A DNA stretch of 30,488 nt, taken from IMG/VR virus record IMGVR_UViG_3300027608_000104, positions 1-30,488 of that record; one strand, given 5' to 3'. A program made the position numbers and the translations under genes. The notes under the pieces are model-generated. The model had not been told where the DNA came from, ran no database searches, and saw only the letters and a program-made list of their open reading frames with translations. The DNA comes from a virus. This document shows positions 10,686-28,477 of the stretch, in pieces (positions within the stretch are counted from its first letter, which is position 1; each line of letters starts with the position of its first letter).

Positions 10686-13600
10686 TTATCTTAAATTTTC
10701 AAATTGTTCTTTCTTTTTAATTGCCCAAATTGCTGAATAATTTTTACCTGTAAATCCTAATGATGACAAGAAATGATTTAAAATTTTTGCAGATTCTTTT
10801 TCTTGCCATGCATACGGACCAACATCCTGCTTATAATATGCTGATTCATTACCTGTTACCAAATAAAATAAATCTTTTGTTAACTTTAGCATATTACCTA
10901 TAGTAGGTTGTAAAACTATTGTGCTTGATTTAGTAAAATCCAACCAATCTTGGGATCCAAATACAGGATTAAATAACTGATTCTCTTTTTGAATCATTAA
11001 TACTTGATATAATGCATGATTAGCAATCCATCCTGATAAACCATAATCTTTTTCTCTTTGTTTCATTTTTGCAAATCTATCTGAATCATCATCATCATAT
11101 CCAAATATAATAGCAGCAGTAAGCATCAATAATATTATATAAGCCGTTTCAGTTAACATTTTTTTCAATGCAACTTTTTCTCTATTTGTCATGTAATGTT
11201 TTAAGTAATCAGCATCTTGTAACATTTTTTTAATAGCAGATAAAGCATCAACATAAAAACCTCTTGTTAATTCATTAGTGTTCCAATTATAAACATCACC
11301 TCCTAAATTATTTTTTGACGTATCAAACTGAAATCTATTTAAAAACAAACCAGTAATAAATCTTCTAGAGAAAAAGAAAGTATTATAAAGTAAATTCTTT
11401 TCAGCCAAAGGCGAATCCAGTTGATTGGTTAAACCATTTAATCTTAGATTAGCATCATAAACTTTGAATTTAAAATCATTTAATTTTTTACTTCTACTTA
11501 TTATTAGTTCTTCACCTTCAGAAAGAGCTCTTTCTTTTTTAATTTTATTTTTAGCCATTAATTCAGCTACAGACATGTGATATTTTTTGGCTAAACTTTC
11601 TAATGTTTCTCCTGTAGATACAACATGATTTACTTTGTCTACACCCCATTCAGGATTGATTCCTTCTTTTAATTTTAAAATATTATTTTGATCAAGTTCA
11701 AATGCTTCAGAATAAGGAATTTGAATTACAGAACCATTGTCTTTTACTTGATCTACCATTTGATAATACATCATACCAAATCCTAATTCTAATGAAGAAT
11801 TAACCTCCATTAACTTTCTATCAGAATATAACCAATTTCTATCAAAAAAATCTGTTACAAATGATCTTGTAGAAGCTTTACCAAACTCTGTTCTTGCTTT
11901 ACCTGGTGTTAAATCAAAAGCATCAATAATTTGTGTATCTAAAGGTTTTGCACCTTTAGCATAATAACCTTTAGTGCCAAGTTCAAATGTTGCTTTTGCT
12001 GCTCTATACTTACCTTGAGCCATACTTTTTATATTCATATTTTTACCACCAGCAACCTCAATAAGTTTATTAAATTGCATACCACCACGGTTTTTTAATG
12101 ATGATACAGGATTTAATGAATAAAAAGCAAAACTACTGAAACCCATTAGTGAAGAACTTAATTTAGTAATCCATGGATTATCAGCTTGAAAATCACTAAC
12201 TTTTTTTCCATAAAATGTTCTATTTATAAAATCTAATAATGCTGTTACTCTTCTATCAGTATCTGTATTTTTGGATAAATTTTTAATTTTATTTGTAGCT
12301 TTTAATAAAGAACTACTTGCCTGATTTAAGTTTTTAATTGAATTATCTTCATTAGATAAAACATCTAATATAGCATTCATTACAGGTTCTTCTTTGATTA
12401 AGACTCTTTGCTCATTAAGTGAATACATATAATCCCACATGGCTCTTAATACATCTGTGGAAGTTTCTTTTAAATCAAGCTTATATACACCTCTTACAGG
12501 AATTCTAGATATTGCACTACCTTGTAAATCAGTAGGAACATACATCATATGTTCTTCTAGATTCATAGCATATGTTTCAGCATCATCTGCTTTTTTCTGA
12601 AAAATAGATTTAATATATTCTAATCCTGTTTTAGCAACAGTTAACTTATCTTTTGCTTCTTGTTTTCCTTTACCAGATCTTATGTATTCTAAGGTAGTTC
12701 TTTGACGAAATCTTGCTAAATCTAAATAAAGTCTTGAGGAATAAGGTGTATCTTTTTGAACATCAAGATAATTTTGTTTTAATTTTTCAAGAAGTTTAAA
12801 TTTGGCATTGTTAGTTGCTTTCAAATCATAATATTCTTTATTTAAATATTTAGTATCTGATGCATCTTCTCTAGGTAAATAATTACCTCTATTATCTATA
12901 ACAGTTCCTATATAATTTGTTGATTTACCTGTTGGTATTGTTTTATAATCATCTTTTATAAATGATTTAGTATATTTAGAAATTGGGGCTCCATCTACAG
13001 TAATCTCTTTCCCAGTAATTGGGCTAATGATTTTTGTTTTCTTATAATAAGAACTATCATTAGGTCTTTCTACACTCCATACTTTTATTCTTGAATAACC
13101 AGTATCATAACCACCTTGACCATTATTTAATTCTTGATCCCATATATCTCTAACTACATGATTATTTAAAAACCAATTTTTAAATACATCGTTTTTTTCA
13201 AATAAATCTGCTATTGTCTGTTTATCACGTACAAAATCATCAATTGTTTCTTCTGTAAGTGGCTCTATATCAATACCTTCAAGTGCTTTATTTATAGCAA
13301 TAATATAATAATCTGTAGCTACTATATCTCTAAGTTCATTTAGTTCTGCATATTTTGTTCTTAACTCAGCAGATTCTAATACAGATAAACCAAATTCATT
13401 TTTTTTATTTGTTAAGTCAGTAAAATCATCAATATCTTTTTGAGTACTTGCAATTTTACTGTTTTTCTTAAATACATAATTTTCTAAATAAAATAGTCTT
13501 TTTGATTCTTTTGGTGTTAATCCTGATTTTTTGTCAAATGTTTTTTGCAACTGAATTATTTCTTCTTCTATTTCCAAAAGTCTTTGAGAAGATGCTTCTC

Positions 13601-16600
13601 GTAAATTTAAACCATTTGGTTGCCCATCTTTATCAGTTACTTGATTAACAAGTCTAAATCGTTCTTCATAAAGTTCATTAAGTTTTTTTACAGTAGGATT
13701 GTTATTGCTACGTATTTGCAATTCTTTTATTCTATTTAAAATGTTTGCTTTATCTTCAAAATATTTAGCAGAATAAGATATACGTGTAGTTTTAGCAATA
13801 AATTGATCTATTCTTCTTTTAAATTCTTCTGGATTTTCTTCTAATGTAACACCTTCTGCTGGTAAAATTACTTTAGCAAAATGATCTAAATCATTTTGAT
13901 ATTTATTAAAATCAGTTTCAAATGTATAAAATTTAGAAGACTCTTGTCTATATTTTCTTCTTACTAATACTCGTTGAAGTTCTTCACCTGATTTATATTG
14001 ACCAGTTGATAATGTCAAAGAATATAAATCATCATATTCAATCTGTGCTTCTTTAGATGGTGTAAAATCTAAAACATCATCGAGCTCAGTCCATGCTGAA
14101 TTATTTTTTATAACATTTAATTTCTCCAATGCCTTTTGCCTTTCTATATAAGCATCTAAAGATACATTAGCAGATACGGTAATTGTTTGTTTTGTTGAAG
14201 GATCGTATACTTCATTATCTGTATTCCATATTTTTCTAACATCATAAACAACTTGTTTATAAGGTCTATGCATATACTTTTCATTAAATTCAGCTAATGC
14301 AGATATAGCAATTTTAATATCATCCTTATTACCTTTTTTTCTAGCAATAACAAGATTGTTTTCCAATACAGCTAGATCATATCTCCAATTTTTAAACTTA
14401 TCAATAAAAGTATAAATTTCATATTCAGAAACTTCATTTGTTTCAGGGTTAATATCTGGAACTTTATCTACTGTAAGAAAAAAATCTTTCATCTCAGTAG
14501 TATTAGTGGGATCAATACCTGCTGCAATGAATAAAGGATTTAATTGATCAGCCATTTTATTTAACTGAGTATAGCTTTCACTTTCTGTTTGTGATAATTT
14601 TTGTCTTACGTATTTAAAAACTGAACCAAGTAAATCATCCATATTACCTGTAGGTGTAAACATTGCTGTAAGTAAACCTAAATCTTCTGTTTTACCTTCT
14701 ACATAATCACTTATAGTATCAGCAGTTATTCTTTTAACAGTGTAAGCTTGAATTCTATCCATTAAGAGATTAATAGCTTTAGGTTGTCTAGATAGTTTTA
14801 ACTGTGTGGCACTAATATTTTTAAGTTTTTGATTATCAATTTTATCAAAAATATCTTCAAAAAATTCTTGTATTTCTTGTTCTGAAAAACTTTCTTTATT
14901 TAATATTTGAAGAACTCCAGTTTTAAAATCACCTGTGATATTTTCAGCTAATAATTCTGTATTATCAATAAAAAATTCTTTGGCAAACTCTAAAGTTAAT
15001 TCATCAGAAAGATCAATAGTATTTTCTAATTGCGTATTAATACTAGATAATTTAGCAATTAAAGGATTTGTACTATCTAACTTTAATAACTTTATAGTGC
15101 CTCTAATAAAATCTTGTTCTCCTTTAAGAACATTTTTAAAGTATTTAACTTTAGCAATTCCATCAACAGTTAGATGTTTATTATTTTCTTTTAGATTATT
15201 TAATACTTCATTTACTTTTCTAGTAAAAACATCTATTTCATTTACACTATTTATAAAAGCTAAAGATCTTGTTCTAAAGTCACCTTCTCTTTGTTCTAAT
15301 GCTGTAACAATATTATTAAGATCATCCTCTGTCAAATTTAAACCTGTGGTTTTAAATGGTTCTAAATAATCTCTTATATTTTTAATAACATTTAATCCAC
15401 CTTCTTCTTCTAATTCTTCTCTTAATCTTTTAGGAGAGTTTTTTAGAAGATTTAATTGATATTTCATAAAACTATGAGTATCATCAATTATTTGAATAAA
15501 ATCTTTAGCATTTGTTTTTTCTAATGCTTTTATAAAATCATCTGTTTCTTTACTCATTTCAGCAAATAAAGATTTTTGATATTGTAAATCAGTAATAACA
15601 AAGTCTTTATTAATCATCATATCAACAAGTTCATTTAATGTAGTAGATGAATTAAGGTTAGCTAATTTTACTTCCCTACCCATAAGTTTTTTAATAACTT
15701 GTTTTAATGCATAAATTAATTTATCCATAAAATTTTTAAATGCTACATCATCTGATTTTATATTATTGATTTTATTTTCAGCATCTATTTCCATAGCAGT
15801 AACTATAGATTCTTCTTTAAATCTGTCAGTACCTTCTGCTAATTCAGGATATTCATCACGAACTCTTTGTTTAGCAAGTCTACCAGTAGTAGATAAATCT
15901 AATTGAGCATATAAATTATCAAAAAGTATTTTATTTTGATATGCAATACCTTTAATTAAGGGGTGTGCAAATTCATGAATTACTTTAGATGAATTAAATT
16001 TACCTTTTATAAAATAAACAGCATCACCATAAAAAAATGCAGATACATTTGACTTATAAGGAGTTGGACTATTTTGCAATAACATTATTGCTTCATCTGG
16101 AGTTACAATATAATAGTTTATATCAAAAGCTTGTTTAAATTTTTCACCAAGTTTTTCTGCAATTTCTAAATCTCTTTGAGCTTCGAGTGCTCTATCAAAA
16201 TTTAATTGATTAGTTACTTCATCAAAAAGATAATTATCTGTATATTCTTTATCAGTAACACCAAGTCGTCTTGCATCTTCTTTCTGAATTTCTCTGGCTT
16301 GAGTTTCGGCTTGTTTATATTCTGTTAGTTCTTTTTGAACTTCTAAATCATAATAATGATCAATTAAAGATTTAGGTATTGTAATTACTGGATTTAAAAA
16401 GTCACCTTGTATTTGATAATCTAATACTTTAAGTTGTTCAATTTTATCATTAGAAGGTCTATATTGATTTATATAATCTGTTAAATCTTCATTTACTTTT
16501 TGAGCATATCTCTTAGCAATATCAATTCTTTTACCAAGACCATCTTTAGAAAGATCTTCTACTAATTTTTCTGCAAACTGTTTTATCTTAATTCTACAAG

Positions 16601-16604
16601 GCAT
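10686..16604 (-). CDS. 1972-aa giant protein with HExxH peptidase-like motif, LysM domain and hydrophobic segment
   Basis: 1972 residues. Near the N-terminus VIHEFAH gives a zincin-type HExxH site (H210, E211, H214), with EE at 264-265 in KEESIV a possible third ligand. Long charged helical and coiled-coil-like stretches follow over about 300-1400. A LysM-like domain spans roughly 1658-1703 (HVVSTGETLESLAKKYHMSV, then LSEGEELII); LysM binds peptidoglycan and could hold the protein at the cell wall during DNA entry. A hydrophobic segment at about 1816-1836 (AYIILLMLTAAIIFGY) ahead of DDDD could be membrane-inserting. It follows the RNA polymerase gene by 32 bases and likely belongs to the same set of packaged, injected giant proteins. 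The domain order resembles polyvalent proteins of phages and mobile elements. The exact role is inferred. Confidence 0.85.
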   Translation of the reverse strand: MPCRIKIKQFAEKLVEDLSKDGLGKRIDIAKRYAQKVNEDLTDYINQYRPSNDKIEQLKVLDYQIQGDFLNPVITIPKSLIDHYYDLEVQKELTEYKQAETQAREIQKEDARRLGVTDKEYTDNYLFDEVTNQLNFDRALEAQRDLEIAEKLGEKFKQAFDINYYIVTPDEAIMLLQNSPTPYKSNVSAFFYGDAVYFIKGKFNSSKVIHEFAHPLIKGIAYQNKILFDNLYAQLDLSTTGRLAKQRVRDEYPELAEGTDRFKEESIVTAMEIDAENKINNIKSDDVAFKNFMDKLIYALKQVIKKLMGREVKLANLNSSTTLNELVDMMINKDFVITDLQYQKSLFAEMSKETDDFIKALEKTNAKDFIQIIDDTHSFMKYQLNLLKNSPKRLREELEEEGGLNVIKNIRDYLEPFKTTGLNLTEDDLNNIVTALEQREGDFRTRSLAFINSVNEIDVFTRKVNEVLNNLKENNKHLTVDGIAKVKYFKNVLKGEQDFIRGTIKLLKLDSTNPLIAKLSSINTQLENTIDLSDELTLEFAKEFFIDNTELLAENITGDFKTGVLQILNKESFSEQEIQEFFEDIFDKIDNQKLKNISATQLKLSRQPKAINLLMDRIQAYTVKRITADTISDYVEGKTEDLGLLTAMFTPTGNMDDLLGSVFKYVRQKLSQTESESYTQLNKMADQLNPLFIAAGIDPTNTTEMKDFFLTVDKVPDINPETNEVSEYEIYTFIDKFKNWRYDLAVLENNLVIARKKGNKDDIKIAISALAEFNEKYMHRPYKQVVYDVRKIWNTDNEVYDPSTKQTITVSANVSLDAYIERQKALEKLNVIKNNSAWTELDDVLDFTPSKEAQIEYDDLYSLTLSTGQYKSGEELQRVLVRRKYRQESSKFYTFETDFNKYQNDLDHFAKVILPAEGVTLEENPEEFKRRIDQFIAKTTRISYSAKYFEDKANILNRIKELQIRSNNNPTVKKLNELYEERFRLVNQVTDKDGQPNGLNLREASSQRLLEIEEEIIQLQKTFDKKSGLTPKESKRLFYLENYVFKKNSKIASTQKDIDDFTDLTNKKNEFGLSVLESAELRTKYAELNELRDIVATDYYIIAINKALEGIDIEPLTEETIDDFVRDKQTIADLFEKNDVFKNWFLNNHVVRDIWDQELNNGQGGYDTGYSRIKVWSVERPNDSSYYKKTKIISPITGKEITVDGAPISKYTKSFIKDDYKTIPTGKSTNYIGTVIDNRGNYLPREDASDTKYLNKEYYDLKATNNAKFKLLEKLKQNYLDVQKDTPYSSRLYLDLARFRQRTTLEYIRSGKGKQEAKDKLTVAKTGLEYIKSIFQKKADDAETYAMNLEEHMMYVPTDLQGSAISRIPVRGVYKLDLKETSTDVLRAMWDYMYSLNEQRVLIKEEPVMNAILDVLSNEDNSIKNLNQASSSLLKATNKIKNLSKNTDTDRRVTALLDFINRTFYGKKVSDFQADNPWITKLSSSLMGFSSFAFYSLNPVSSLKNRGGMQFNKLIEVAGGKNMNIKSMAQGKYRAAKATFELGTKGYYAKGAKPLDTQIIDAFDLTPGKARTEFGKASTRSFVTDFFDRNWLYSDRKLMEVNSSLELGFGMMYYQMVDQVKDNGSVIQIPYSEAFELDQNNILKLKEGINPEWGVDKVNHVVSTGETLESLAKKYHMSVAELMAKNKIKKERALSEGEELIISRSKKLNDFKFKVYDANLRLNGLTNQLDSPLAEKNLLYNTFFFSRRFITGLFLNRFQFDTSKNNLGGDVYNWNTNELTRGFYVDALSAIKKMLQDADYLKHYMTNREKVALKKMLTETAYIILLMLTAAIIFGYDDDDSDRFAKMKQREKDYGLSGWIANHALYQVLMIQKENQLFNPVFGSQDWLDFTKSSTIVLQPTIGNMLKLTKDLFYLVTGNESAYYKQDVGPYAWQEKESAKILNHFLSSLGFTGKNYSAIWAIKKKEQFENLR

Positions 16605-16636
16605 TATACTTCTTTATTTAAATATACAAATTATAA

Positions 16637-19600
16637 TTAACATGTGTCTCCTGTATCAGGAATATTAAATCCTTCTAAACCAAATAAGTTTAAATTAGTA
16701 TTAGTTGGTTTAACACTAGTAGATAGTTCATCAGATACAAACTTTTTAAATCCTGCTATGTCTTGTTTAGAACCTAATGCATGTACTTGTTCTGGTTTAT
16801 ATGTAATGTATGTTTTTTCATTACCTCCTTGACCACTATCTCTTCCTATTACAGAATCAGTATTTTCTTTTTTTACTTCATCAGGAGTAACAAATTTATC
16901 CCCTAAACCACTTTCTCTAAACTTTTTAGCTTTATCTGAAAATTCATATTGTTCATCTACTATAGTTGGATTAATAATATTTAAAATAATAGGATTTCTT
17001 TTACCTTTCATTTCTTCTAATTCTATTAACCAAGAACCAAAATCTGTAGAATAAAAGGCTTTATTATCTATTGGAGTTATATTGCCAGTTTTATTAACAT
17101 GATAAACAATATCTTTTACTTTACTATCAGGAAATATAGAATCTAAATATGCAGAGTATTGTTCAGGTGTACCTATATTATTTAACTCAGAATTAGATTC
17201 AAATAGTTCTGACACACCTTCTTTAACACTAGTAGATGATTGAGTAGTTTCAGTAGATAAATTACCTGTATCATTGTCAAATCCAAATTCTTCTAAAAGC
17301 CTTTGTTTTAAATATTGATATGTATCTGGAGCTTTTTCTTTTGTTTTAGCAAGTCCTGTACCTAAACCATCTTTAGGTAATACAATTATTCTACCATCAG
17401 CTTTAATTTTTTCTATAGCTCTATTAATTAAACTAATGTTTGCTTCATACATTTTATCATTAAAATATGCTTTTTCATAAGTATTTGGAGAACTCTTTGT
17501 TGGTATACCAAATGCATTTTCTTCATCTCTTACTATTGCTTGACCTCCTTTACCTGTTTGAGTAACATTATCACCGAACACATATATTTTATCAGGATTT
17601 GCCTTCAATAAAGCTGTAGTATAATAATTAGATTCAACTTGAACATTACCTACAGATTGAGTAGATGATTGAGTAGTAGTAGCAAGTGCAGTTTTAAGTT
17701 GTTCTCTCCAATCAGTATCAGCCATATTAATAGTTGGTATACCTTTTCTTCTAGCCATTTCTACAGCTTGTCCTGTACCACCTTTAGGTCTTAAAGGATT
17801 ATTTGTTTCCGGAGCATAAAATATTACAAAATCTACTGTATTGTCAAGATTTTTACCAAAAATTTGATTAGTATTTCTTGCCATTAATTTTATAGCACCT
17901 GGAGTAAGTCTATCTGGAGCAGGGTGTACTTCTTTAACTATAGCACTAGACTTTTCAGTAACTGCTTCATTATACTTATCAGCAGATACAATTCCTTTAA
18001 CAGTTTTTCTTATACTATAAGGACCAAATAAAGTTTTGTTTTTACTTCCATCTGAAAAAGCTTTATCCGCACCTTCTTCATCTAAATTTGTTTCTTTATT
18101 TTTAAATGTAAAACCTGTTTGTAAAGTATATCCTAAACCGTCAAGATATTTAGCAACTTCAGTCATTTTATCAAGAACCTCTTGTGGAGTTTGTCTAGAA
18201 CCAATACCTGCATAAGTCATAGTTGGGCTAGATGACTTATTAGGAAGACTATTTAATATAGGTTTATTAGTATTATCAACACTGGCAGGTTCTTGAGTAG
18301 GTTTTATTACTCTAGGAAATACAATCTCACTTGTATCATCTTCTGATTCTTCTTGAACATCATCAACAGGTACAGTTACTGTATAGTTTTTAAATTCATT
18401 AATAGATAGCAATGTCTTTAAAATCTCTTCTAAATTAGAAAAAGGATCTTCTGAACTCAATACATTTTTTTCAAAATTCAATACAGGTTGTTTAACTAAA
18501 TCAGTAAATTTTTCAGCATTAAGAATATTAGCAAATCCAAATCTATTTTTACCTACACCATGTTGAAAATATACAACCTCAGAAAAGTATTTAAATACAT
18601 TTGATATATGTTTATTTAATTCTTTATATTCATTACCAGCATATTTAGAAAAATCAATATCACCCAATTGATCTAACTGATTTTTATAAGAATCAGCCAT
18701 ATCACCATCAGCACTCAAACCATCAGAAAAATCAAATAATCTTAACGTTGAGTTTTTAAGAGTTGCTTGAGTTATAAAATTTAAAACTGGAAAAGTATTA
18801 GTCAATATCTTATTATCTATTATGGTTCTCATCACTAAGTCATAGTATGACATGGTAGTAGTACCACTAATATAAGCTGGATTAAAACTTGCATATAATG
18901 CACTCTCAGCAAGAAACTTTTCATAAGCAGCTTTCTCAGATGTAGATTCTTCTAATATATTTTTATACATCACATTATCTTTTACACTAGATAATGGTTT
19001 ATCTTTTCTAATGAATTCTCGATGCATTACAAATTTTACAAACTGTTCTAAATTTTTAAATGGATTTAAGTTTCCACCTATAAATGTATGATAATCTAAA
19101 TTTGTATAATTTTTATCTACTGTAAAGTTTTTAGCTAGATAAGCTCTATTTTCATAAATTTCAGTAAGTAAGTCTAAATTAACTTCTATAAAGTCATCTG
19201 TTATATTTACTTCATTTTCTATAGAGTTATTTATTTTTACAGGTGTAGTATGAAATACTTCAGGTACAGTTGCTTTTATACCTTCTACATTATAAAAATA
19301 AGTAAGTCTATTTTGAAATAAATTATTTAATACAGCATTGTTAAAATTCTTAGTAAATTTTTCTTCTCCTGATACACCTTCACCAAATCTTCTAACAACT
19401 TTAGAATTTGACATTGCATTTTGAATAAATACTGCAGTTACTGGGTGAAGTCTAAAAGGAAGGACACTTTCTGCAATAGATATTATAAGATCTGTATTGT
19501 TAAAGTTTTTCATAATAGATTTCTCCATTACTTGTTCAACAAATATATCATTGATTTTAGAATCACTTTTTAATCCAAGTAAGTTAAGTCTTCTTTTATT

Positions 19601-22600
19601 TACCTGTTGAACTGTAGAAAGTTTATCAGTATCATAAGAAGATATTATTTGAAAATTATCTAATCCACTTTTTTGATTTTCTAGTTCAATATAATTAGCA
19701 AAAATAGCAAGTGCTTTTAAGGATTCCATATCATTAGAATCCTTTACTTCTTTTAATTTATCTATAGTAATAGTATTACCTATATATTTAGAAGCGGCTT
19801 CAGCAAATTCTACATAATTTTCAGAAGTTATTAATGAACCATATATTTTATCTTTAGATAAATTAATTCTATTAAATACTACATTACTATCAGGATTTAA
19901 ATCATAAATAGAAATTATTTTTTGTAATTCATTTTTATATAAATCACTTTTTTTAAAATCAGCTACATTAGAAAATTTATCACTAACAGCTACACCCTCT
20001 TTGTTTTTATAATTTACTTCTATTGGTCCTGACATAAATTCAACATGTCTTTTTAATTTAAGTTCATTTGTTCTAAAACCAATTTTAACTAGTTCATCAT
20101 AAGGAATGTTTTTTAATGCATCCTGTTTAGCTTCATATCTAGCATATATGCCTGGAGTTAAAACAGGAGAAAATGCATTGTTATATTTTCTAATGTTTTC
20201 AATATATTGTTTAACTAGTGGCTGATTCATTAAGTAAAATACCTCCTCTTCTGATACACCAACTTGTATTAAGTAATTAATTACTCCAATTGCTTCAGGA
20301 AATAATTGTAATGTAAATGGCCAAGACTCTTTACCTCTATCTAGAATACCATTAAGATTATGAGAATTAACATCAGTAATTCTAGGTCCTTTATTACTAA
20401 AAGCTCCCGATAATGATATATGTTCTTTACCATCAATGTTAAGTTTATTGTGTTTAAATCTCAAATGCATAGGAACGTCAACTGTCTCATCTACAAGTCC
20501 ATTACCTAGATTTATTTGTTTTTTATAAACTAAAGGCATTGGAGCCAATAGAGTCTTATACATTATATGATTCTTATTAACTTTTGCTGTAATACCTAAA
20601 GCAGGTTCCAAGGATAAGTTAGCATCAAACTTATATAAGTTATAAGCAACGGTTAATAATGTAGATGGACTAATTCTTTTTTGTCCTTTTTTGTTTGTAA
20701 TACTTGAAATTTTATAAGGATTATCATATCTATCATAAAGATTAGAACCTTTTTCTAAATCAGCTACATATTTTTGTACTAAATATGTCTTATTTGGTTT
20801 AATTAAATACGCAAAATTTTCTGGTATCTTCATTATATTAGCAGCAGAAGTAATATATTTATTTTGATAATACTTTTTAACTTGCTCTAAATACTTCTTA
20901 GGTTTTAAATCATCTTTAGAAAGTTTTCCATCGGTCTCTAAAGTTTTTAATCTTTCATATTCTTTAATAAAATCTTCATAACTTGCAGGACCAGTGTTTA
21001 CTACTTTACCTGTTTTATCTATATGAGGCATTGTAAGAAATAACTTATCACCGTCAAAGTCAGATCCAGCTTTTGCAACAAGTTCTGTAGGTACTATAAC
21101 AGTATTTAAAACAGAAGCATCAACAAAATGCCAGACTTCAAATGCTTCAATAGTATTTGTAGCATCATTTGGAATTCTTGGACCTACTAATGTAATTGCT
21201 TCTCTATGTTGATTTAAGAACTCATCTGTTTTAATAAGTTCATTTAATCTATCCATAGTTTGTATTTTAGAACCTTGCCATTCTAAGTTTAATAAATTTA
21301 CAAAATCTCCATTAAACGGTATTGCAACTTTAGCTAAGTATGTTTGAGATCTTTCTCCTGTTTTTTTATTAATAATCTCACCTCTTCTATAGAATGGTAA
21401 GGTATTGGAACCTAGGAATTTTTTTTCTAATTCTTTATTTTTAGTAACTGCTTCATCTTTTGTAAAAGCACTATCCCATAGACCATTAGTAAATGTAGAA
21501 GGTGCTTGAACCATTGGTTCACCTTTAGTTTTTTGTCTAACAATTCTATTTTGAATTATTGAAAGTATAAGTTTTTCTATTTTTTCTGCTTCTGGAATAA
21601 GAGATAAATCATATCTTAAATGATCACCTTTACGAGATGTATCAACAAGCTTTTGAATATGATTAGGAACATTTCTTTTTCCTAATTCATCTCTTATAAC
21701 TTCAACAAATCTTTTTAAGTTACCAACATAGCTACCATCTACTTCCTCAAAACCTATTTCATCTAAAAGTTCTCTTTTATATAATTCAGTTAAGTCTTTT
21801 ACATTAGTGTTATAATTATCTACTAAAGGTTTATTTTTTTCATTAATAAGTTTACCATTATTAAATAAGTTATCATAAATAATAAAACGAGTTTGTGTTG
21901 CAATAGGAATTACATTTTTTAGTTTATCATTTATTACAGTAACTTCTTTTAAATAATTTAAATATATAGGATTTGCAGTAATAATAGCTTCTTCATTAAG
22001 ATCTTTGTCTTTGTCTGTAGCAAATAAATTATTGACTTCCCCGTCCTCAGTTAGATATGATCCTTTAGATCCTGATTCAAATGTTACATACTGAACATTA
22101 TCTTTTAACATTTTTAAATGTAATTTATACAATTCAGAACCTTCTTTTGCATTACCATTAGGTATCAACGGCATTACAGAAAATTTATGCATTGCAGTAG
22201 TTGCAATAAAATCATTTTCTAATGAACCAAAATAGTGATATTTTCTTATTGGAAAGCCTTCAAAAACTTGTGCTGGAGTAACTTTATCACCATTAGCAAT
22301 TTTTTGAAATAAATCTTCTTGAGATACTGACCATTTTCTACCAGATATAGATAAAGCTCTATATGCATCAAATGTAATCAAAGCAATACCATCAGACTCT
22401 TCCATATCAATATAAGCATTGGCATCCTCTTCTACATAAGCATCTATATCTTCTTTAGAAAGAGCTGGATATGATTCATATGCTTCTCTCCAAGCTTCTT
22501 TGAAATCATCTAAATAAATAGATTTTCTTTTAGCATCTTTAATTACACCTGTGATAATTTTTTCAGAAAAAATATAATTATTTAAATCTTTTCTATCTAA

Positions 22601-25600
22601 TTGTTTAGATAATTTACCTGCATAAGTTTTATCTTCTGTCATTTCAACAGTCTTCATATAGTTTTGCCAGTCTTTATCATTTAAAATACTATAACCACCT
22701 GACTGAACTCCGGGAATTCTTTTAGACCAATCTTCTTTAAAATGATTCCATTGTGCAAAATCACCCATAAGTATAATAGATGTTTCAAACTTATGTATCC
22801 AATCATTATACAAATAAGCTTGCATCAATCTATTTATTACTTTAGTATTGTTTCTTAGATCAATGATTTCAGCATCATTTAATTCTCTATTAAACATTTT
22901 TTCAAGTATAGATTTTGGTACAAAAGGTATCTTATTATAGTATAAATCTATATGTGATTGAGTTTGAAAATTAAAATACTCAGTTACATCATTAAATATT
23001 TTATCATACAAATCTCTATTTTGCCTAATGTAATCAACTATATCCATTTCTAATTGATCATCAGCTAAAGCATATAACTCTTTTTTAGTTGAGTTTTTTA
23101 AAATAGTATCAAATGCTGAAAAAATATCTCCTTCTACAACTTCATTTCCATTTTGAGAGATGCCAACCGGTCTATTAAAACCTGATATCTTTAATAAGTT
23201 TGGTCTTTCGGCAGGGTTTCTAAACTTTTTAAGTCTATCAAATTCAGCAGCAATATAGTTAAGCATATGATTTTCAAATATATACTCTCTAGCTTTAGTT
23301 ATTTCTCTAAACATAGGTACATCTGCATATAAATAAAGATCATCTCCTTTTGTTATACCCGTAGGAGTAACACCTCCTTGAAGACCTCCCTTTAATCTTA
23401 TAGCAAAAGAAGATTTCTTTTCAGACATCCTAGGTAATTCATCCACTCCACCTAAAAGAACATTACTAAATCCTAATAAGAATCTTCCTAATGGATCTAA
23501 TTCAGTAGTTGCTTGTCCAACTTCTCCTTCTGGTTTAAATCCTGCAATATATATTGTTTCTAATGTTTTATCATTTCTTTCAGCCAGTGGATTGTTTAAA
23601 TCAAATAACTGATTAAGCAATGTTAATCTTTTAGTGAATGTATTTATTTTTGGATCCAAATACCTCATATGAGGATGATTCTTAATCAAATCTGCAAATG
23701 ATTTAGCAGAGTTCAATGCATTTGTTTTTTCAAGCATTGCGTTCATGTCTGAATTTTCATAAGCAATATTGTTATTAGGTAACAATACACCTAAATTAGC
23801 AGAATCATATCCATATTTAGCTTGTAACTCAATCATTCTTTTTACTTGAGTCTTTTGATTAACAGATGACTTATCTACAATACCAGCAGCAATTTCATTG
23901 TTTAAAACATTTAATGGATTTTGTTTAAATTTAACAACTGCTTCTACTTGTAAAGGGGAATATTTACTAGGATCACTTTCAATAGTTTCAAATGTCTTAA
24001 GTATTCTAAAGAAATATGGAAGACCAAACTCTACTCTTTTTGCACCTAATTCATCTTTTATAGCACTAACATCATCAAAATAAATTCCAATAGCATTAGC
24101 AAATTCAAAGTCTTTGGTTGAATCTAACTCACCTTTAGAATTTGAAAAGTCTTGTATAATTTTAGAAAGTTTTAATTCACGTTTATTATCTTCTGTTTTC
24201 TTAATGTATTTAGTAGTTGGAGAAGTTAAATAACTATTAGTCCAACCTTTTAAAATACTAGATACTTCTATAGAAGATTGAGTAAATATAAAATCATAGC
24301 CTACAGGAGTTTTTTCTATATTACCCCCCATATCAATTTCTTTAATAATAGGCACACCTAATAGATTCCAATATTTAATTCTTGGTCTAGAGAAATCTTG
24401 CCAGAAACTTAAACTTACTTTAGCTTCAAATCTGTTTCCAATATTTTTAGGATCAGGTAATTTATACTCTATAAGTTCATTTAGCTCTGGGAAAATAAGA
24501 TTTCCATCTTTATCTTTTTTATTTGCTTCTTCACTTAAAAGTTTAAATACTTCATTTCTATCTTGAACACCTCCGATAGTTTTTGCAACTTGAGTAAAGA
24601 CTTTTCTAAAATCAGCTCTTTCATTAAAACCAAACTTATCTTTTATAGGATTACCTTCAAAATCCACTTTAGTTAATGACTTTAAAATAAATTTAGTTTC
24701 ACTACCTAGAAGATCTTGTAATTTAGTTTTAAGATTTTTTTCATCAGCAAGATTAGATGAATCTCTGTGAGTTTCTGCAGGGTTATTAGGATCTTTTACA
24801 TTGTCATCTGAATCAATATTTTCTTCTATATCAACTTCCACAGATTTTTTAAGAATTTCAAAATCAGAATTATTCATATGATATTGAATAACACCTTTTG
24901 AATCATTACCCCAGTTACGAATAGCTGTTTGTAATATTCTAATATTATCCGATAATACTTCTTGTTCAGGAGTAAGTACTTGATCAATAAATGTAGGATT
25001 TATAGGAATAATTTCATCATATGCCTTAGCACCACCTTCTATGTAGTTTTTTAATTGTACATCAGCATCTTCATATTTTGATACAACAAGTATATCTACA
25101 TCTTTTAATTCTTTATGCGTATAAAAATCTCCTACTATTTTTATAGAATGCCACTTTTCCCCTTTAACTCTATCACCATTTTTTAGGTCTGCATCAAGTA
25201 AATTATAATCATCTATCTGGCTTTTTAAAAGAACATACTTATCTCTACCTTTAGTATTGTTCATTATAGCTACAGCATTCTTTTTAAAATTTTCTTTTGT
25301 TTTAAATGTACTAAGTAAAGGAACACCTTTTATAGTTCCTAACTTTGTTGTTTCTTCGTCTAATTTATCTTGAAGTCTTTGTTTAATTCTTGTATATAAA
25401 TAAGCTTTATTTTTTTCTAGTAAGAGTGTACCTAATGCAGTAGCTTTTAGATTTGGTAAACCAGCAGCTTTTCTTTCATCATAAATAGCTTTAGTTTCTT
25501 CAACTATTAAATTATCTATTGATCTTGATAATTGTTGAGAATCCCCTGTACTTAATGCTTCATATTTAGGATAGTTTACATTACTCACTCCTCTATCCAT

Positions 25601-28477
25601 TTCAAAGAAATAGATGTTATTTATTGTAGGTTCATAATTATTTATTTTACCTATATACAAGTTATTATAAAGTTCAGCTACTCTTGGAATATTCATTATA
25701 TCCATTCTAACTTCATGAGCTGAAGGATTCTTTATTCCAAATAATGCTTTTAAAAATTTAAGTATTCTTCTAAACAAACTATTTTTTTTAGGAGAACCTT
25801 TTTTAACTGTTTGATCTTTAGCATAGTTTCTAAAATCTTCAGCCAACATTTCTTCTATTTCAAAGAAATTCATATTAATATATGGTTGTTTACCAGAAGC
25901 ATCTTTATAATTTTTTACTTCTTTATATAGCTCAAACTTTTCAGCTTTACTTAAGAATAACTGAGAGAATACATGCCATGATTCATGGTATACATCTACA
26001 AATGTACCTTTAGCAGGATTAATAAGAATTGATGCTATAAATGGATCATCCGGATTTAATAAGTTAGATCCACTAGTAACAAATTTTGCATAGACATTAG
26101 AGTTAACTAAATTCATTGCAAAACTAAATCCTATATTATTTTCTCTAAATATCTTACCTGTTTTAGAAGTTTTCCACCACTTTTCTGCAGAATCAATTAA
26201 TTCTTTTGTTGGTTTATCATCTGGATAATTTGATCTATTAAAATCTAGATCAAGAGATGTTTGAGGAGTATTTAAATCATTGTTATTAATTTCTTGACTT
26301 TGAAAAGATGGATTTTCTACAGACAAATCTTTTTTCTTTTGTTCTTCAAATTCTTCGTCAGTAGATATTCTTATATTTCCAATATACTTGTCATCTATAT
26401 AAACTTCAATTACATCATCAAACTCATCAACTGTATCTCTATATTTTAATTCAGCTGTAACTCCTAAGTAATCATTACTATTTCTTAAAGCATCTATTTC
26501 TAAACCAAAGTTTTCTTCATTAATAATAACTATATCTTTATTTTTTACAGTATTATAACCATCTGCAATCTTACCATTACCTTCAACAAAACTAAATCTT
26601 CTTTTAGAATATTCTGGAAAAATTATATCACCTGTAATGTTCTCTCCTTTTTTTAATCTTTCTACTAGTGCAGCATGTATTTCTTTAATTTCATTTACTG
26701 TACCAGGAATACTATTTAAATTCTCATCAATAGTTTCTGTTTGACTATCTTGTAAAAGTGATATAGGTCCATCAGCAGCCCCAAAAACAATCTGTTTATT
26801 ATAGAAACCAGGATCGGCATTAATCAATCTTACATCTTGATTAAATTGAGTTATAAAATCAACATAATTATTATCAACTTTAATCTGTTTTGTATTTATA
26901 TCATATCTTAAAAAAGGTTTTGTTTTATTTATAAAATCTTTTTCATAAGTAAAAAACGTAGGTTTACCATTATAACCTTTTAAATATGCATTTTTTATTG
27001 CTGTAATATTGTTTAAAATTTCATCATCAGACATTTTACTTATTGCCTCAGATGTAAATTTGATATCTTGTCTTATACCGTCTAAACCTGTTTTAGCATA
27101 TATTATAAATATACCATCATTAGTATATTTATGTTTTTTAACTTTTGAGGTTAATGTTCTAGATGAATATCCTTCTAATACTTTAATCTTAGTATCAACT
27201 GGAATATTAGGATTCATCAATAACTCTGCAATTTCATTGGCAATTGTTTCAGTTATTTCAGGTCTAGTTATTTCAAACTTATTGTTATTTAATACAATAT
27301 ATCCAAATCCTTTTCTTATTTGTTCATCAAATTCACCAGCTATGTCTAAAGTATTAACTACATTTTTATCAACAGTAGGTTGTTCAATTAAATCTTTTAT
27401 ACCAATTACAATAGATGATAAATCTGAATTAACTCCACTAGTTACTCCAATAAACGGTAAAAATTGTACAGCATTAGGATCACTCTTTAAAGACTCTTGT
27501 ATATTATATAATGTTTCAAATTCTTTTTGTTTATTTTTTGAATCTTTAACTTGATCTTCTATATTATAAATGTCTTTAACAGTAAATCCATTGTTTGTTT
27601 TTCTTGCTGCTCTTAGGAACTGATAGAATATTTGACCATTTTCTTTTGTTGTTATGTTTCCATCTTGATCAAAATATAAATTTTCTCCAGCTTCATCTAC
27701 AAGAACAAGTATTACTCTTTGATTATTTTGAAAAACATCTTCTTTTTGTTTACTGTCAGTAACTATTTCTACAGATCTATTATACTCATTTTGAGTATCT
27801 GCGTATAGTAAGTTTATGTTATTAGTTCTAACAAACTCACTTAATATTTGAGCTTTTATTTTTACTTGTACTTCTTGATACTCAAATAAGTCAGGATTCT
27901 CAGATACTTGAAATGCTTTTTCTAATTTATCAAAAGTATTTATAAAAGATTTTTTAGACTTATTTAATGTTGTTGGTTCTAATGTTTTTTTATCATTAGG
28001 ATTAATTTTAACAAAAGGAGAACCTGTTCCAGTAAAAGTTTTTGAAGCTACAAACCTATCCGGATTTTTAACAGGCGGCTCATCTCCTTCAATTTGTTCT
28101 TGCTGTAAAGCTAATTCTTTTTCTACTTCAGCAAGTTGTCTTAATATAGGTGTGTCATCTTTTTTAAAAACATCTATGATATTTAACAAACCTCTTTCAG
28201 AATCTTTAAATAGTTTATTTAAATCTTTTATTCTATTAATATTTATAGCATCAGGTAAGTTATCTAAACCAACTTGTGCAGCTGCCTTAAACATTATATC
28301 GGGCACATATTGCAAAAATTTTGCAGCATTATCTGTATTAGTTTTTTCTGCAATCTTGTTAAAAAGATTACGCATATATGTTTCTGGATCAAAAGATTTA
28401 TTTTTTGATAAATGCCCATAAACATTTGCATATAATTTTTCAATTTGACTTGGTGAAAGTGCACAGGTTATATTCAT
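16637..28477 (-). CDS. 3946-aa giant virion RNA polymerase with zincin-like, SLOG-like, macro-like and ART-like domains
   Basis: 3946 residues. A zincin-type HESWH site (H831, E832, H835) is followed by the likely ligand region EEMLAEDF (about 875-882). The polymerase core has the DFDGD loop at D2473, D2475 and D2477, inside a VAKAGSDFDGDKLFL strand context preceded by VGPRIPND. About 230 residues later comes the LNGILDRGKESWPF segment that I associate with crAss-like RNA polymerases. This is the single-chain, two-barrel type related to phi14:2 gp66, YonO and eukaryotic RNA-dependent RNA polymerases. The C-terminus adds a SLOG-like Rossmann domain (about 3420-3590, YAGIGSRQTP), a DUF7831/macro-like domain (about 3613-3735, IYVFGDN and DGLGTGLA) and an ADP-ribosyltransferase-like domain (about 3767-3915, H3793 and Y3809). 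Ser/Thr-rich linkers join them. The start overlaps the previous stop as TAATG. The RNA polymerase call is strong; the C-terminal calls are moderate. Confidence 0.93.
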   Translation of the reverse strand: MNITCALSPSQIEKLYANVYGHLSKNKSFDPETYMRNLFNKIAEKTNTDNAAKFLQYVPDIMFKAAAQVGLDNLPDAININRIKDLNKLFKDSERGLLNIIDVFKKDDTPILRQLAEVEKELALQQEQIEGDEPPVKNPDRFVASKTFTGTGSPFVKINPNDKKTLEPTTLNKSKKSFINTFDKLEKAFQVSENPDLFEYQEVQVKIKAQILSEFVRTNNINLLYADTQNEYNRSVEIVTDSKQKEDVFQNNQRVILVLVDEAGENLYFDQDGNITTKENGQIFYQFLRAARKTNNGFTVKDIYNIEDQVKDSKNKQKEFETLYNIQESLKSDPNAVQFLPFIGVTSGVNSDLSSIVIGIKDLIEQPTVDKNVVNTLDIAGEFDEQIRKGFGYIVLNNNKFEITRPEITETIANEIAELLMNPNIPVDTKIKVLEGYSSRTLTSKVKKHKYTNDGIFIIYAKTGLDGIRQDIKFTSEAISKMSDDEILNNITAIKNAYLKGYNGKPTFFTYEKDFINKTKPFLRYDINTKQIKVDNNYVDFITQFNQDVRLINADPGFYNKQIVFGAADGPISLLQDSQTETIDENLNSIPGTVNEIKEIHAALVERLKKGENITGDIIFPEYSKRRFSFVEGNGKIADGYNTVKNKDIVIINEENFGLEIDALRNSNDYLGVTAELKYRDTVDEFDDVIEVYIDDKYIGNIRISTDEEFEEQKKKDLSVENPSFQSQEINNNDLNTPQTSLDLDFNRSNYPDDKPTKELIDSAEKWWKTSKTGKIFRENNIGFSFAMNLVNSNVYAKFVTSGSNLLNPDDPFIASILINPAKGTFVDVYHESWHVFSQLFLSKAEKFELYKEVKNYKDASGKQPYINMNFFEIEEMLAEDFRNYAKDQTVKKGSPKKNSLFRRILKFLKALFGIKNPSAHEVRMDIMNIPRVAELYNNLYIGKINNYEPTINNIYFFEMDRGVSNVNYPKYEALSTGDSQQLSRSIDNLIVEETKAIYDERKAAGLPNLKATALGTLLLEKNKAYLYTRIKQRLQDKLDEETTKLGTIKGVPLLSTFKTKENFKKNAVAIMNNTKGRDKYVLLKSQIDDYNLLDADLKNGDRVKGEKWHSIKIVGDFYTHKELKDVDILVVSKYEDADVQLKNYIEGGAKAYDEIIPINPTFIDQVLTPEQEVLSDNIRILQTAIRNWGNDSKGVIQYHMNNSDFEILKKSVEVDIEENIDSDDNVKDPNNPAETHRDSSNLADEKNLKTKLQDLLGSETKFILKSLTKVDFEGNPIKDKFGFNERADFRKVFTQVAKTIGGVQDRNEVFKLLSEEANKKDKDGNLIFPELNELIEYKLPDPKNIGNRFEAKVSLSFWQDFSRPRIKYWNLLGVPIIKEIDMGGNIEKTPVGYDFIFTQSSIEVSSILKGWTNSYLTSPTTKYIKKTEDNKRELKLSKIIQDFSNSKGELDSTKDFEFANAIGIYFDDVSAIKDELGAKRVEFGLPYFFRILKTFETIESDPSKYSPLQVEAVVKFKQNPLNVLNNEIAAGIVDKSSVNQKTQVKRMIELQAKYGYDSANLGVLLPNNNIAYENSDMNAMLEKTNALNSAKSFADLIKNHPHMRYLDPKINTFTKRLTLLNQLFDLNNPLAERNDKTLETIYIAGFKPEGEVGQATTELDPLGRFLLGFSNVLLGGVDELPRMSEKKSSFAIRLKGGLQGGVTPTGITKGDDLYLYADVPMFREITKAREYIFENHMLNYIAAEFDRLKKFRNPAERPNLLKISGFNRPVGISQNGNEVVEGDIFSAFDTILKNSTKKELYALADDQLEMDIVDYIRQNRDLYDKIFNDVTEYFNFQTQSHIDLYYNKIPFVPKSILEKMFNRELNDAEIIDLRNNTKVINRLMQAYLYNDWIHKFETSIILMGDFAQWNHFKEDWSKRIPGVQSGGYSILNDKDWQNYMKTVEMTEDKTYAGKLSKQLDRKDLNNYIFSEKIITGVIKDAKRKSIYLDDFKEAWREAYESYPALSKEDIDAYVEEDANAYIDMEESDGIALITFDAYRALSISGRKWSVSQEDLFQKIANGDKVTPAQVFEGFPIRKYHYFGSLENDFIATTAMHKFSVMPLIPNGNAKEGSELYKLHLKMLKDNVQYVTFESGSKGSYLTEDGEVNNLFATDKDKDLNEEAIITANPIYLNYLKEVTVINDKLKNVIPIATQTRFIIYDNLFNNGKLINEKNKPLVDNYNTNVKDLTELYKRELLDEIGFEEVDGSYVGNLKRFVEVIRDELGKRNVPNHIQKLVDTSRKGDHLRYDLSLIPEAEKIEKLILSIIQNRIVRQKTKGEPMVQAPSTFTNGLWDSAFTKDEAVTKNKELEKKFLGSNTLPFYRRGEIINKKTGERSQTYLAKVAIPFNGDFVNLLNLEWQGSKIQTMDRLNELIKTDEFLNQHREAITLVGPRIPNDATNTIEAFEVWHFVDASVLNTVIVPTELVAKAGSDFDGDKLFLTMPHIDKTGKVVNTGPASYEDFIKEYERLKTLETDGKLSKDDLKPKKYLEQVKKYYQNKYITSAANIMKIPENFAYLIKPNKTYLVQKYVADLEKGSNLYDRYDNPYKISSITNKKGQKRISPSTLLTVAYNLYKFDANLSLEPALGITAKVNKNHIMYKTLLAPMPLVYKKQINLGNGLVDETVDVPMHLRFKHNKLNIDGKEHISLSGAFSNKGPRITDVNSHNLNGILDRGKESWPFTLQLFPEAIGVINYLIQVGVSEEEVFYLMNQPLVKQYIENIRKYNNAFSPVLTPGIYARYEAKQDALKNIPYDELVKIGFRTNELKLKRHVEFMSGPIEVNYKNKEGVAVSDKFSNVADFKKSDLYKNELQKIISIYDLNPDSNVVFNRINLSKDKIYGSLITSENYVEFAEAASKYIGNTITIDKLKEVKDSNDMESLKALAIFANYIELENQKSGLDNFQIISSYDTDKLSTVQQVNKRRLNLLGLKSDSKINDIFVEQVMEKSIMKNFNNTDLIISIAESVLPFRLHPVTAVFIQNAMSNSKVVRRFGEGVSGEEKFTKNFNNAVLNNLFQNRLTYFYNVEGIKATVPEVFHTTPVKINNSIENEVNITDDFIEVNLDLLTEIYENRAYLAKNFTVDKNYTNLDYHTFIGGNLNPFKNLEQFVKFVMHREFIRKDKPLSSVKDNVMYKNILEESTSEKAAYEKFLAESALYASFNPAYISGTTTMSYYDLVMRTIIDNKILTNTFPVLNFITQATLKNSTLRLFDFSDGLSADGDMADSYKNQLDQLGDIDFSKYAGNEYKELNKHISNVFKYFSEVVYFQHGVGKNRFGFANILNAEKFTDLVKQPVLNFEKNVLSSEDPFSNLEEILKTLLSINEFKNYTVTVPVDDVQEESEDDTSEIVFPRVIKPTQEPASVDNTNKPILNSLPNKSSSPTMTYAGIGSRQTPQEVLDKMTEVAKYLDGLGYTLQTGFTFKNKETNLDEEGADKAFSDGSKNKTLFGPYSIRKTVKGIVSADKYNEAVTEKSSAIVKEVHPAPDRLTPGAIKLMARNTNQIFGKNLDNTVDFVIFYAPETNNPLRPKGGTGQAVEMARRKGIPTINMADTDWREQLKTALATTTQSSTQSVGNVQVESNYYTTALLKANPDKIYVFGDNVTQTGKGGQAIVRDEENAFGIPTKSSPNTYEKAYFNDKMYEANISLINRAIEKIKADGRIIVLPKDGLGTGLAKTKEKAPDTYQYLKQRLLEEFGFDNDTGNLSTETTQSSTSVKEGVSELFESNSELNNIGTPEQYSAYLDSIFPDSKVKDIVYHVNKTGNITPIDNKAFYSTDFGSWLIELEEMKGKRNPIILNIINPTIVDEQYEFSDKAKKFRESGLGDKFVTPDEVKKENTDSVIGRDSGQGGNEKTYITYKPEQVHALGSKQDIAGFKKFVSDELSTSVKPTNTNLNLFGLEGFNIPDTGDTC
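16709..16724 (-). repeat. Linker repeat copy A (after ART-like domain)
   Basis: The 16-base sequence TTTAACACTAGTAGAT here is identical to 17222-17237. It encodes the STSVK linker following the ART-like module near the C-terminus of the giant polymerase protein. Confidence 0.85.
17222..17248 (-). repeat. Linker repeat copy B (between macro-like and ART-like domains)
   Basis: This stretch contains both repeat units: bases 17222-17237 match 16709-16724 (16 bases) and bases 17231-17248 match 17660-17677 (18 bases). It encodes TTQSSTSVK, the linker between the macro-like and ART-like modules, and so links the other two copies. Confidence 0.85.
17660..17677 (-). repeat. Linker repeat copy C (between SLOG-like and macro-like domains)
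   Basis: The 18-base sequence AGTAGATGATTGAGTAGT here is identical to 17231-17248. It encodes part of the TTTQSSTQS linker between the SLOG-like and macro-like modules. Confidence 0.85.

What the first reader, a model, noticed from the sequence alone, without database searches (positions are those of the whole stretch)
16637..18225. SLOG-like, macro-like and ADP-ribosyltransferase-like modules fused in a row to a virion RNA polymerase
Seen: after the polymerase core of the 3946-aa protein come YAGIGSRQTP with GADKAF and GGTGQAVEMA (SLOG/DprA-like), then IYVFGDN, GIPTK and DGLGTGLA (DUF7831, macro-like), then VYHVN, FYST and a final YKPEQVHALGS (similar to ART domains of polyvalent proteins). 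Known: SLOG domains bind or process nucleotides including NAD-related signals, macro domains bind ADP-ribose, ART domains transfer ADP-ribose from NAD, and phage T4 injects the ART Alt that modifies host RNA polymerase. Inference: this is an injected NAD/ADP-ribose module, either redirecting host transcription or countering NAD-depleting or ADP-ribosylating defences, delivered in the same chain as the phage polymerase.
Basis: partly seen in the sequence, partly recalled or inferred. Interest (0 to 1): 0.8.

Follow-up and report, generated by a model that had tools for sequence, protein, structure and literature searches.

The report
Swappable NAD/ADP-ribose tail on phage RNA-polymerase
A crAss-like phage carries, on the very end of the giant RNA polymerase that such phages pack in their particles and inject, a row of small domains of the kinds that bind or process NAD-derived molecules, and a sister phage with an almost identical polymerase carries a different row in the same slot, which suggests an exchangeable, pre-loaded counter-defence payload.

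Summary
The 3946-aa ORF (16637-28477, minus) is a crAss-like RNA polymerase. Its C-terminus holds a SLOG domain (phrog_768, E 2e-45), DUF7831 (Pfam, E 6e-35; best structural matches are DarG/TARG1-type macrodomains, but weakly) and a diverged polyvalent ART (the model matches PARP/ParT folds; 43 of 61 relatives hit ART-PolyVal). SLOG and DUF7831 keep their motif residues. The ART keeps its His, but the usual Tyr position is Phe and the PARP Glu position is Thr, so an Alt-like transferase is doubtful.

The larger finding is that this row is a replaceable cassette. Sister contig L241 (about 90% DNA identity on both sides) has a different 2.1-kb segment in place of 16713-18363. Among 57 complete polymerase C-termini sampled by active site only, 25 carry at least one of the three module types and none carries two types. 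In three named Crassvirales the transcription-block tail holds NADAR beside a DUF7831 variant, with a SLOG-type segment in two.

The individual families, and SLOG-macro-NADAR groupings, are published as predicted countermeasures to ADP-ribose signals. I found no report of them on a crAss-like virion polymerase. Best explanation: an injected, exchangeable counter-defence payload. Biochemistry and virion presence here are untested.

The parts
16637..28477 (-). 3946-aa crAss-like RNA polymerase polyprotein carrying the tail cassette
   Evidence: ORF list; DFDGDK at residue 2473; similarity to crAss002 RNAP catalytic subunit and 15 other crAss-like records
18364..25694 (-). polymerase part kept in the sister phage (91.6% DNA identity to L241)
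   Evidence: blastn; L241 begins inside the gene, so nothing upstream of 25694 could be compared
21047..21061 (-). polymerase active-site motif DFDGD
16713..18363 (-). exchangeable cassette: the stretch replaced by an unrelated 2.1 kb in L241
17666..18220 (-). SLOG domain, residues 3420-3604 (GxGSR, GADxxF, RNTNQ, GGTGQxxE kept)
   Evidence: phrog_768 E 1.8e-45; column conservation
17303..17629 (-). DUF7831, macro-like; residues 3617-3725; FGDN, TGKGGQA, GIPTK (K3661 invariant in 49/49), PKDGLGTGL
   Evidence: Pfam PF25176 E 6e-35; model pLDDT 95.8; best structural rows are macrodomains
16712..17242 (-). polyvalent-type ART, diverged; residues 3746-3922
   Evidence: active-site columns
17101..17160 (-). 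ART leader YSAYLDSIFPDSKVKDIVYH, unusually conserved at DNA level across contigs
17638..17676 (-). linker between SLOG and DUF7831 with two copies of the TQSST-type repeat
17221..17247 (-). linker repeat between DUF7831 and ART (reference copy of the 27-nt family)
18274..18300 (-). linker repeat copy upstream of SLOG (70% to the reference), near the left breakpoint
16708..16734 (-). linker repeat copy at the right breakpoint (78%)
   Evidence: breakpoint
16640..16711 (-). conserved polymerase C-terminal end (NLNLFGLEGFNIPDTGDTC), nearly identical in DNA to L241

Best explanation
The C-terminus of this crAss-like virion RNA polymerase is an exchangeable payload bay. Here it carries a SLOG domain, a DUF7831 macro-like domain and a diverged ART. 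Being part of the polymerase chain, the modules would be packed in the virion, injected and present before any phage gene is expressed (inferred from relatives). There, SLOG and DUF7831 would bind or degrade ADP-ribose-type signals or adducts made by host defence: SLOG at the base-ribose bond, DUF7831 at groups on the distal ribose (inferred). The ART probably binds rather than transfers, or acts weakly (inferred). The cassette is exchanged between phages by recombination between the conserved polymerase body and the conserved last 25 residues, perhaps helped by repeated linker DNA (inferred). Shown: domain identities, fusion to a crAss-like polymerase, replacement of the cassette between two close relatives, and recurrence of NAD/ADP-ribose-type modules in other crAss-like polymerase tails. 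Not shown: virion packaging in this phage, any enzymatic activity, any effect on a defence system.
For: Domains. Motif residues kept in SLOG (R3534 and G3566-G3567 35/35; E3573, E/D in 30/35) and DUF7831 (K3661 49/49). Same slot, different content: L241 is 91.6% identical over 18364-25694 and 88.7% over 11335-16712, with nothing alignable between, and a sharp right border. General: 10 of 25 listed pairs with at least 85% core identity have less than 75% of the tail alignable; SLOG is 66-74% identical where the core is only 24-27%. Active-site-only sample: 25 of 57 complete tails carry one of the three module types. Named Crassvirales: cr130_1 has SLOG motifs in permuted order (E 1.7e-4), NADAR (E 2e-9) and DUF7831 (2e-21) after the polymerase motif; cr272_1 has NADAR and DUF7831 plus a SLOG-like stretch seen mainly by motif (HMM E 0.17); cr131_1 has NADAR and DUF7831 in a separate ORF of the same block. 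Outside polymerases: DUF7831 and SLOG as adjacent small genes in L067 and nearby in L057; fused in L194, L198, L202. Linker motif TQ[SPA][ST] is 19-fold denser in tails than cores. Literature: crAss-like RNAPs are virion proteins (PMC7886860, PMC10172136); SLOG/Macro/NADAR are predicted to counter ADPr signals and are often combined (PMC9503650).
Against: No biochemical data. The two polymerases with virion proteomics, phi14:2 gp66 and crAss001 gp50, lack all three modules, so virion carriage of such a tail is extrapolated. The macro assignment rests on weak scores: VIA Z at most 5.6, Foldseek E above 0.1, hhalign probability 6%. The segment occupying this slot in L241 has no convincing family match, and my impression of DUF4326 and NADAR there failed the HMM test, so it is not shown that swapped payloads are always NAD-related. 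Other tails carry 2OG-oxygenase, helicase or RNase H, which are not NAD enzymes. Many distant polymerases end in a DUF7831-like domain that has lost the G-x-x-T-K lysine, which may have a structural role.
Confidence: 0.55

Rival explanations
1. The tail modules regulate or assist the polymerase itself: SLOG/DUF7831 sense NAD or ADP-ribose ligands, or process NAD-capped 5' ends of phage transcripts, so that transcription is tuned to the metabolic state or to defence alarm.
For: Fusion to the polymerase; PMC9503650 proposes SLOG as a sensor controlling fused nucleic-acid enzymes; a DUF7831-like domain sits 34-44 residues from the C-terminus in 15 of 57 sampled polymerases, as a fixed part would.
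Against: The same modules are found alone or in unrelated large proteins and are absent from close and distant polymerases, so they are not needed for polymerase function.
Confidence: 0.15
2. SLOG acts as a DprA-like DNA-binding or recombination protein and the tail helps protect or process incoming DNA; the NAD connection is incidental.
For: The best named match is 'DprA-like'; 12 of 35 relatives weakly match Pfam DNA_processg_A; helicase and 2OG-oxygenase (AlkB-like) modules occur in sister tails.
Against: The GGTGQxxE motif has Glu/Asp where DprA has none (comparison with DprA from memory; columns); neighbouring modules are macro-like, ART and NADAR types.
Confidence: 0.12
3. The ART modifies host RNA polymerase or other host proteins at the start of infection, as T4 Alt does.
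For: ART fold; N4-like virion polymerases fused to ARTs of the same clade are published with this proposal (PMC5512222); 8 of 57 sampled tails carry ARTs.
Against: In this copy the usual Tyr column has F, HG is HV, and the PARP Glu column is T; clade and active-site type differ from Alt (H-Y-D versus R-S-E, PMC5512222).
Confidence: 0.1
4. The tail is a passive filler or packaging/structural region whose domains are decaying.
For: ART degenerate; K-less DUF7831-like ends in other polymerases; strong length variation.
Against: SLOG here keeps its motif residues and is 49-83% identical to copies in polymerases whose cores are only 21-41% identical, which speaks for exchange or constraint on working domains; DUF7831 likewise keeps its motif residues.
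Confidence: 0.08

Closest known systems
Viral SLOG-Macro-NADAR networks (Iyer, Burroughs, Anantharaman, Aravind 2022, PMC9503650)
   Same: Same domain types, the same tendency to be fused or neighbours, and the prediction that they counter soluble ADP-ribose derivatives early in infection
   Different: Described mostly as standalone phage genes; no crAss-like phage is mentioned in that text; here they sit on the virion RNA polymerase as a swappable cassette
Polyvalent proteins, including N4-like virion RNAP fused to ART, metallopeptidase and lysozyme (Iyer et al. 2017, PMC5512222)
   Same: Large injected multidomain protein with a virion polymerase plus effector domains, ART of the same Pfam family among relatives, HExxH motif in the same chain
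   Different: N4 polymerase is of the T7 type; this one is the two-barrel crAss-like type; no SLOG or macro-like module on a polymerase was found in the passages of that paper read here
crAss-like virion RNA polymerases (phi14:2 gp66; crAss001 gp47/49/50; PMC7886860, PMC10172136)
   Same: Homologous polymerase with a DxDxD motif, transcription gene block, PDDEXK protein in the block
   Different: gp66 (2180 aa) and gp50 (2412 aa) lack the SLOG, DUF7831 and ART modules
DarG/TARG1 macrodomains (PMC5179494)
   Same: Among the top rows of the structure comparison; parallel order of an N-rich loop, P-T-K lysine and GxGxG loop
   Different: Sequence profile match is weak (hhalign 6%), and the domain is about 34 residues shorter between the first loop and the lysine; activity unknown
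T4 Alt
   Same: Virion-borne ART idea
   Different: Different ART clade and active site; here the active site is partly lost

Membership tests
SLOG superfamily (DprA/LOG) | Profile match to an SLOG-type family | tested here: met
   phrog_768 DprA-like E 1.8e-45 over residues 3419-3604; relatives match Pfam DNA_processg_A and LDcluster4
SLOG superfamily (DprA/LOG) | Glycine-rich loop after strand 1 and GGx loop with polar/acidic residue | tested here: met
   G3424, G3426, R3534, G3566, G3567 35/35; T3568 34/35; E3573 E or D in 30/35
SLOG superfamily (DprA/LOG) | Which clade (DprA, LOG enzyme, YpsA/cADPR sensor) | tested here: inconclusive
   Profile search of solved structures gave DprA only at E 0.4; no structure model was made
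DUF7831 (PF25176) | Pfam gathering score | tested here: met
   120 bits against 27
Macro domain | Macrodomain fold | tested here: inconclusive
   Seven best VIA-align rows are all macrodomains (Z 4.7-5.6, rmsd 3.5-4.2, 100-114 aligned), next unrelated row 4.6; Foldseek E above 0.1
Macro domain (DarG/TARG1 class) | Catalytic lysine in a P-T-K motif | tested here: inconclusive
   K3661 invariant 49/49 in G-I-P-T-K; DarG sequences carry F-P-T-K; no residue-level superposition, hhalign 6%
Macro domain | ADP-ribose binding or hydrolysis | not testable with these tools
   needs protein
ART-PolyVal / Tox-ART-HYD2 | Pfam PF18760 match of this copy | tested here: not met
   No family for the window copy at E 0.01; 43 of 61 aligned members match
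ART superfamily | ART fold | tested here: met
   All 50 listed Foldseek rows are PARP-type ARTs (best prob 0.99, E 0.004); VIA-align best rows PARP, ParT, RES at Z 5.5-6.2
ART-PolyVal / Tox-ART-HYD2 | H-Y-D active site | tested here: inconclusive
   H3793 kept (53/61 H); usual Tyr column is F3808 with Y3809 next; D3874 kept (54/61); PARP Glu column is T3889
crAss-like RNA polymerase | DxDxD motif and homology to crAss-like RNAP | tested here: met
   DFDGDK; all 16 phage records matched are crAss-like, including crAss002 RNAP catalytic subunit
crAss-like RNA polymerase | Virion component injected with DNA | not testable with these tools
   published for relatives only (PMC7886860, PMC10172136)
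Polyvalent protein | Several unrelated effector-type domains in one injected chain | tested here: inconclusive
   multidomain architecture met; injection not testable

The most novel reading that the evidence does not exclude
Crassvirales use the C-terminus of their virion RNA polymerase as a generic, recombination-served payload bay: conserved polymerase end sequences and repeated linkers let phages exchange ready-to-inject anti-defence modules (NAD/ADP-ribose-processing ones prominent), so that the first protein to act in the cell carries the current set of countermeasures.
Probability: 0.4. Interest if true: 0.78.

Novelty: new variant of a known kind. Interest (0 to 1): 0.62.

Why it matters
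If true, one of the most abundant virus groups of the human gut delivers anti-defence modules on the same polypeptide as its polymerase and changes them by cassette exchange. That gives a simple, testable explanation for the extreme size and divergence of these polymerases. It points to polymerase tails as a place to look for new inhibitors of NAD-based bacterial immunity, and it gives DUF7831, a family without known function, a specific hypothesis (DarG/TARG1-like ADP-ribosyl hydrolase or binder).

Tried and rejected
Mixed alignment of all three domains for one structure job failed: the DUF7831 rows misaligned, so only DUF7831 and ART were modelled and SLOG was not. Direct searches of solved structures with the 537-aa tail, and with the DUF7831 and ART profiles, found no relative (triosephosphate isomerase rows look like chance); the SLOG profile reached DprA only at E 0.4. 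PADLOC and NCBIfam gave nothing. phrog_447 'NAD synthetase' at window 3-251 looked like a supporting gene but is a GIY-YIG endonuclease. My visual reading of the L241 tail as DUF4326 + NADAR was tested and not supported. A polymerase query against solved structures did not recover gp66. L088's tail had no relatives in the phage collection. No macrodomain appears among the 50 listed Foldseek rows for DUF7831 in the PDB; they appeared only in VIA-align's second look. Correlation of core and module identity across polymerases was not significant, so 'independent evolution' rests on the close pairs, not on that test. The high 14-mer sharing at the ART leader is partly a selection effect, because loci were fetched with the FPDSKVK pattern.

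Full report
What was checked. It is a crAss-like RNA polymerase: a 1000-aa piece around the active site matches 16 phage records, all crAss-like, including the annotated RNAP catalytic subunit of Bacteroides phage crAss002. The gene order (polymerase, then a ~2000-aa ORF, then replication genes on the other strand) resembles that of three named Oafivirinae (cr130_1, cr131_1, cr272_1). A PDDEXK protein lies next to the polymerase, as described for crAss-like transcription blocks (PMC7886860).

The three modules. SLOG, residues 3420-3604: phrog_768, E 1.8e-45. Across 35 sequences the GxGSR loop, GAD, RN and GG(T)G positions are invariant or nearly so, and the Glu of GGTGQxxE is E or D in 30. DUF7831, residues 3617-3725: Pfam E 6e-35. 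An AlphaFold model on 49 sequences has pLDDT 95.8. In the PDB second look the seven best chains are all macrodomains (Poa1p, a coronavirus ADRP, DarG of Thermus aquaticus and M. tuberculosis, TARG1), Z 4.7-5.6, with the first unrelated chain at 4.6. DarG sequences fetched next to DarT genes show VNTVNxxGVMGxGxA and FPTK; DUF7831 shows FGDN..TGKGGQA and GIPTK in the same order, and K3661 is invariant. K80 of DarG is essential for its activity (PMC5179494; placing K80 in the FPTK motif is my reading). Profile-profile support is weak (probability 6%, E 0.0065) though above 30 column shuffles. I call it macro-like, not proven macro. ART, residues 3746-3922: a model of pLDDT 86 whose 50 listed Foldseek matches are all PARP-type ARTs and whose best VIA-align rows are PARPs, ParT and RES. 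43 of 61 aligned members match ART-PolyVal, the window copy does not. Its His is kept, but the Tyr column is Phe (with Tyr next to it), HG is HV, and the PARP-Glu column is Thr.

The row is a cassette. Contig L241 is the closest relative found. It is 91.6% identical in DNA over 18364-25694 and 88.7% over 11335-16712, but window 16713-18363 is replaced by about 2.1 kb of unrelated sequence; both proteins end in the same FGLEGFNIPDTGDTC. The right border is sharp, with near-identical DNA immediately after it; the left border is gradual. Among listed pairs of polymerases with at least 85% core identity, 10 of 25 have less than 75% of the tail alignable, in one case with modules in a different order. 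Conversely, SLOG is 66-74% identical between this protein and polymerases with only 24-27% core identity. Linkers carry a repeated element: five related 27-nt copies in the window, at or near the module borders. The peptide motif TQ[SPA][ST] is 19 times denser in tails than in cores. Codon identity is raised at the ART leader (ratio 1.38-1.39 against about 1.0-1.34 elsewhere). These are consistent with, but do not prove, recombination at linkers.

How common. Polymerases were fetched by active site only. Of 57 with a complete C-terminus, 15 carry a DUF7831-like domain (34-44 residues from the end), 8 carry ART, 2 carry SLOG, and none carries two types. Because this sample ranks by similarity to the window, it is not a census of Crassvirales. 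Many of the DUF7831-like ends are degenerate and lack the lysine. Tails found by module searches add 2OG-Fe(II) oxygenase and helicase, and the active-site sample adds RNase H and a cpYpsA-type SLOG.

Named Crassvirales. With TAG read as Gln, the cr130_1 polymerase (5801 aa, DFDID at 4229) carries SLOG motifs in permuted order (residues 5037 to about 5200), NADAR and a DUF7831 variant (5430-5579). cr272_1 has NADAR, DUF7831 and a weak SLOG-like stretch. In cr131_1, NADAR and DUF7831 lie in a separate ORF of the same block. In all three the DUF7831 lysine is replaced (STQ). cr130_1's protein is labelled in the database as 'DprA-like DNA recombination-mediator protein'. The polymerases with published virion proteomics, crAss001 gp50 and phi14:2 gp66, have no SLOG, DUF7831 or ART.

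Outside polymerases. DUF7831 and SLOG occur as small standalone genes, adjacent in L067 and close in L057, and fused in other large proteins (L194, L198, L202). DUF7831 is a small gene of unknown function in Caulobacter, Brevundimonas, Ruegeria, Sinorhizobium and other phages. This supports a shared job independent of the polymerase.

Mechanism and standing. Published analysis predicts that phage SLOG, Macro and NADAR domains counter soluble ADP-ribose derivatives and are often combined (PMC9503650), and that ARTs fused to N4-type virion polymerases act at the start of infection (PMC5512222). The present case puts this module set on the crAss-like polymerase, in a slot that is exchanged between close relatives. 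Shown here: identity, fusion, exchange, recurrence. Inferred: injection in this phage, ligand, enzymatic action, benefit against a defence. I found no paper in the held library that describes these fusions; subscription papers and figures could not be searched, and Fig. 3 of PMC7886860, which shows domains in the transcription block, could not be seen.

Noticed in passing
17101-17160: The ART leader (YSAYLDSIFPDSKVKDIVYH) shares exact 14-mers with up to 47 of 145 contig groups, against at most 12 for SLOG/DUF7831 motifs, and has raised codon identity; both ends of this ART family are conserved while the middle is hypervariable. Partly a selection effect of the search pattern.
   Followed up: partly
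DUF7831 model, BFVD matches: DUF7831 proteins also occur in giant eukaryotic viruses (Tupanvirus, Yasminevirus, Hyperionvirus).
   Followed up: no
25973-25987 and 15963-15977: HExxH motifs (HESWH in the polymerase N-terminal half; HEFAH in the 1972-aa ORF) suggest metallopeptidase domains in both giant proteins, as in N4-type polyvalent polymerases.
   Followed up: no
3-251: phrog_447, labelled 'NAD synthetase', matches a GIY-YIG endonuclease here (Pfam SegE_GIY-YIG); the PHROG label is misleading.
   Followed up: yes
28477-30486: PD-(D/E)XK nuclease-like protein directly upstream of the polymerase; in cr130_1 a similar stretch lies inside the polymerase chain.
   Followed up: partly
10686-16604: 1972-aa ORF of the transcription block with a LysM domain at residues 1660-1702 and no relative in the phage collection.
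   Followed up: no
L267, L269, L272, L292, L293, L296, L302, L304, L306, L312, L314, L318 (C-termini): A degenerate DUF7831-like domain, without the G-x-x-T-K lysine, is the last domain of many crAss-like polymerases; L312 (GLRTN) looks intermediate.
   Followed up: partly
L001, L092, L260, L018, L190, L287, L254: Sister tails carry 2OG-Fe(II) oxygenase (AlkB-like), PIF1/AAA_30 helicase or RNase H modules.
   Followed up: partly
L241:7320-9426: The alternative cassette of the sister phage has no Pfam or PHROG match except a weak SepSecS hit, and contains an HExxH-like motif (HEAAH).
   Followed up: partly
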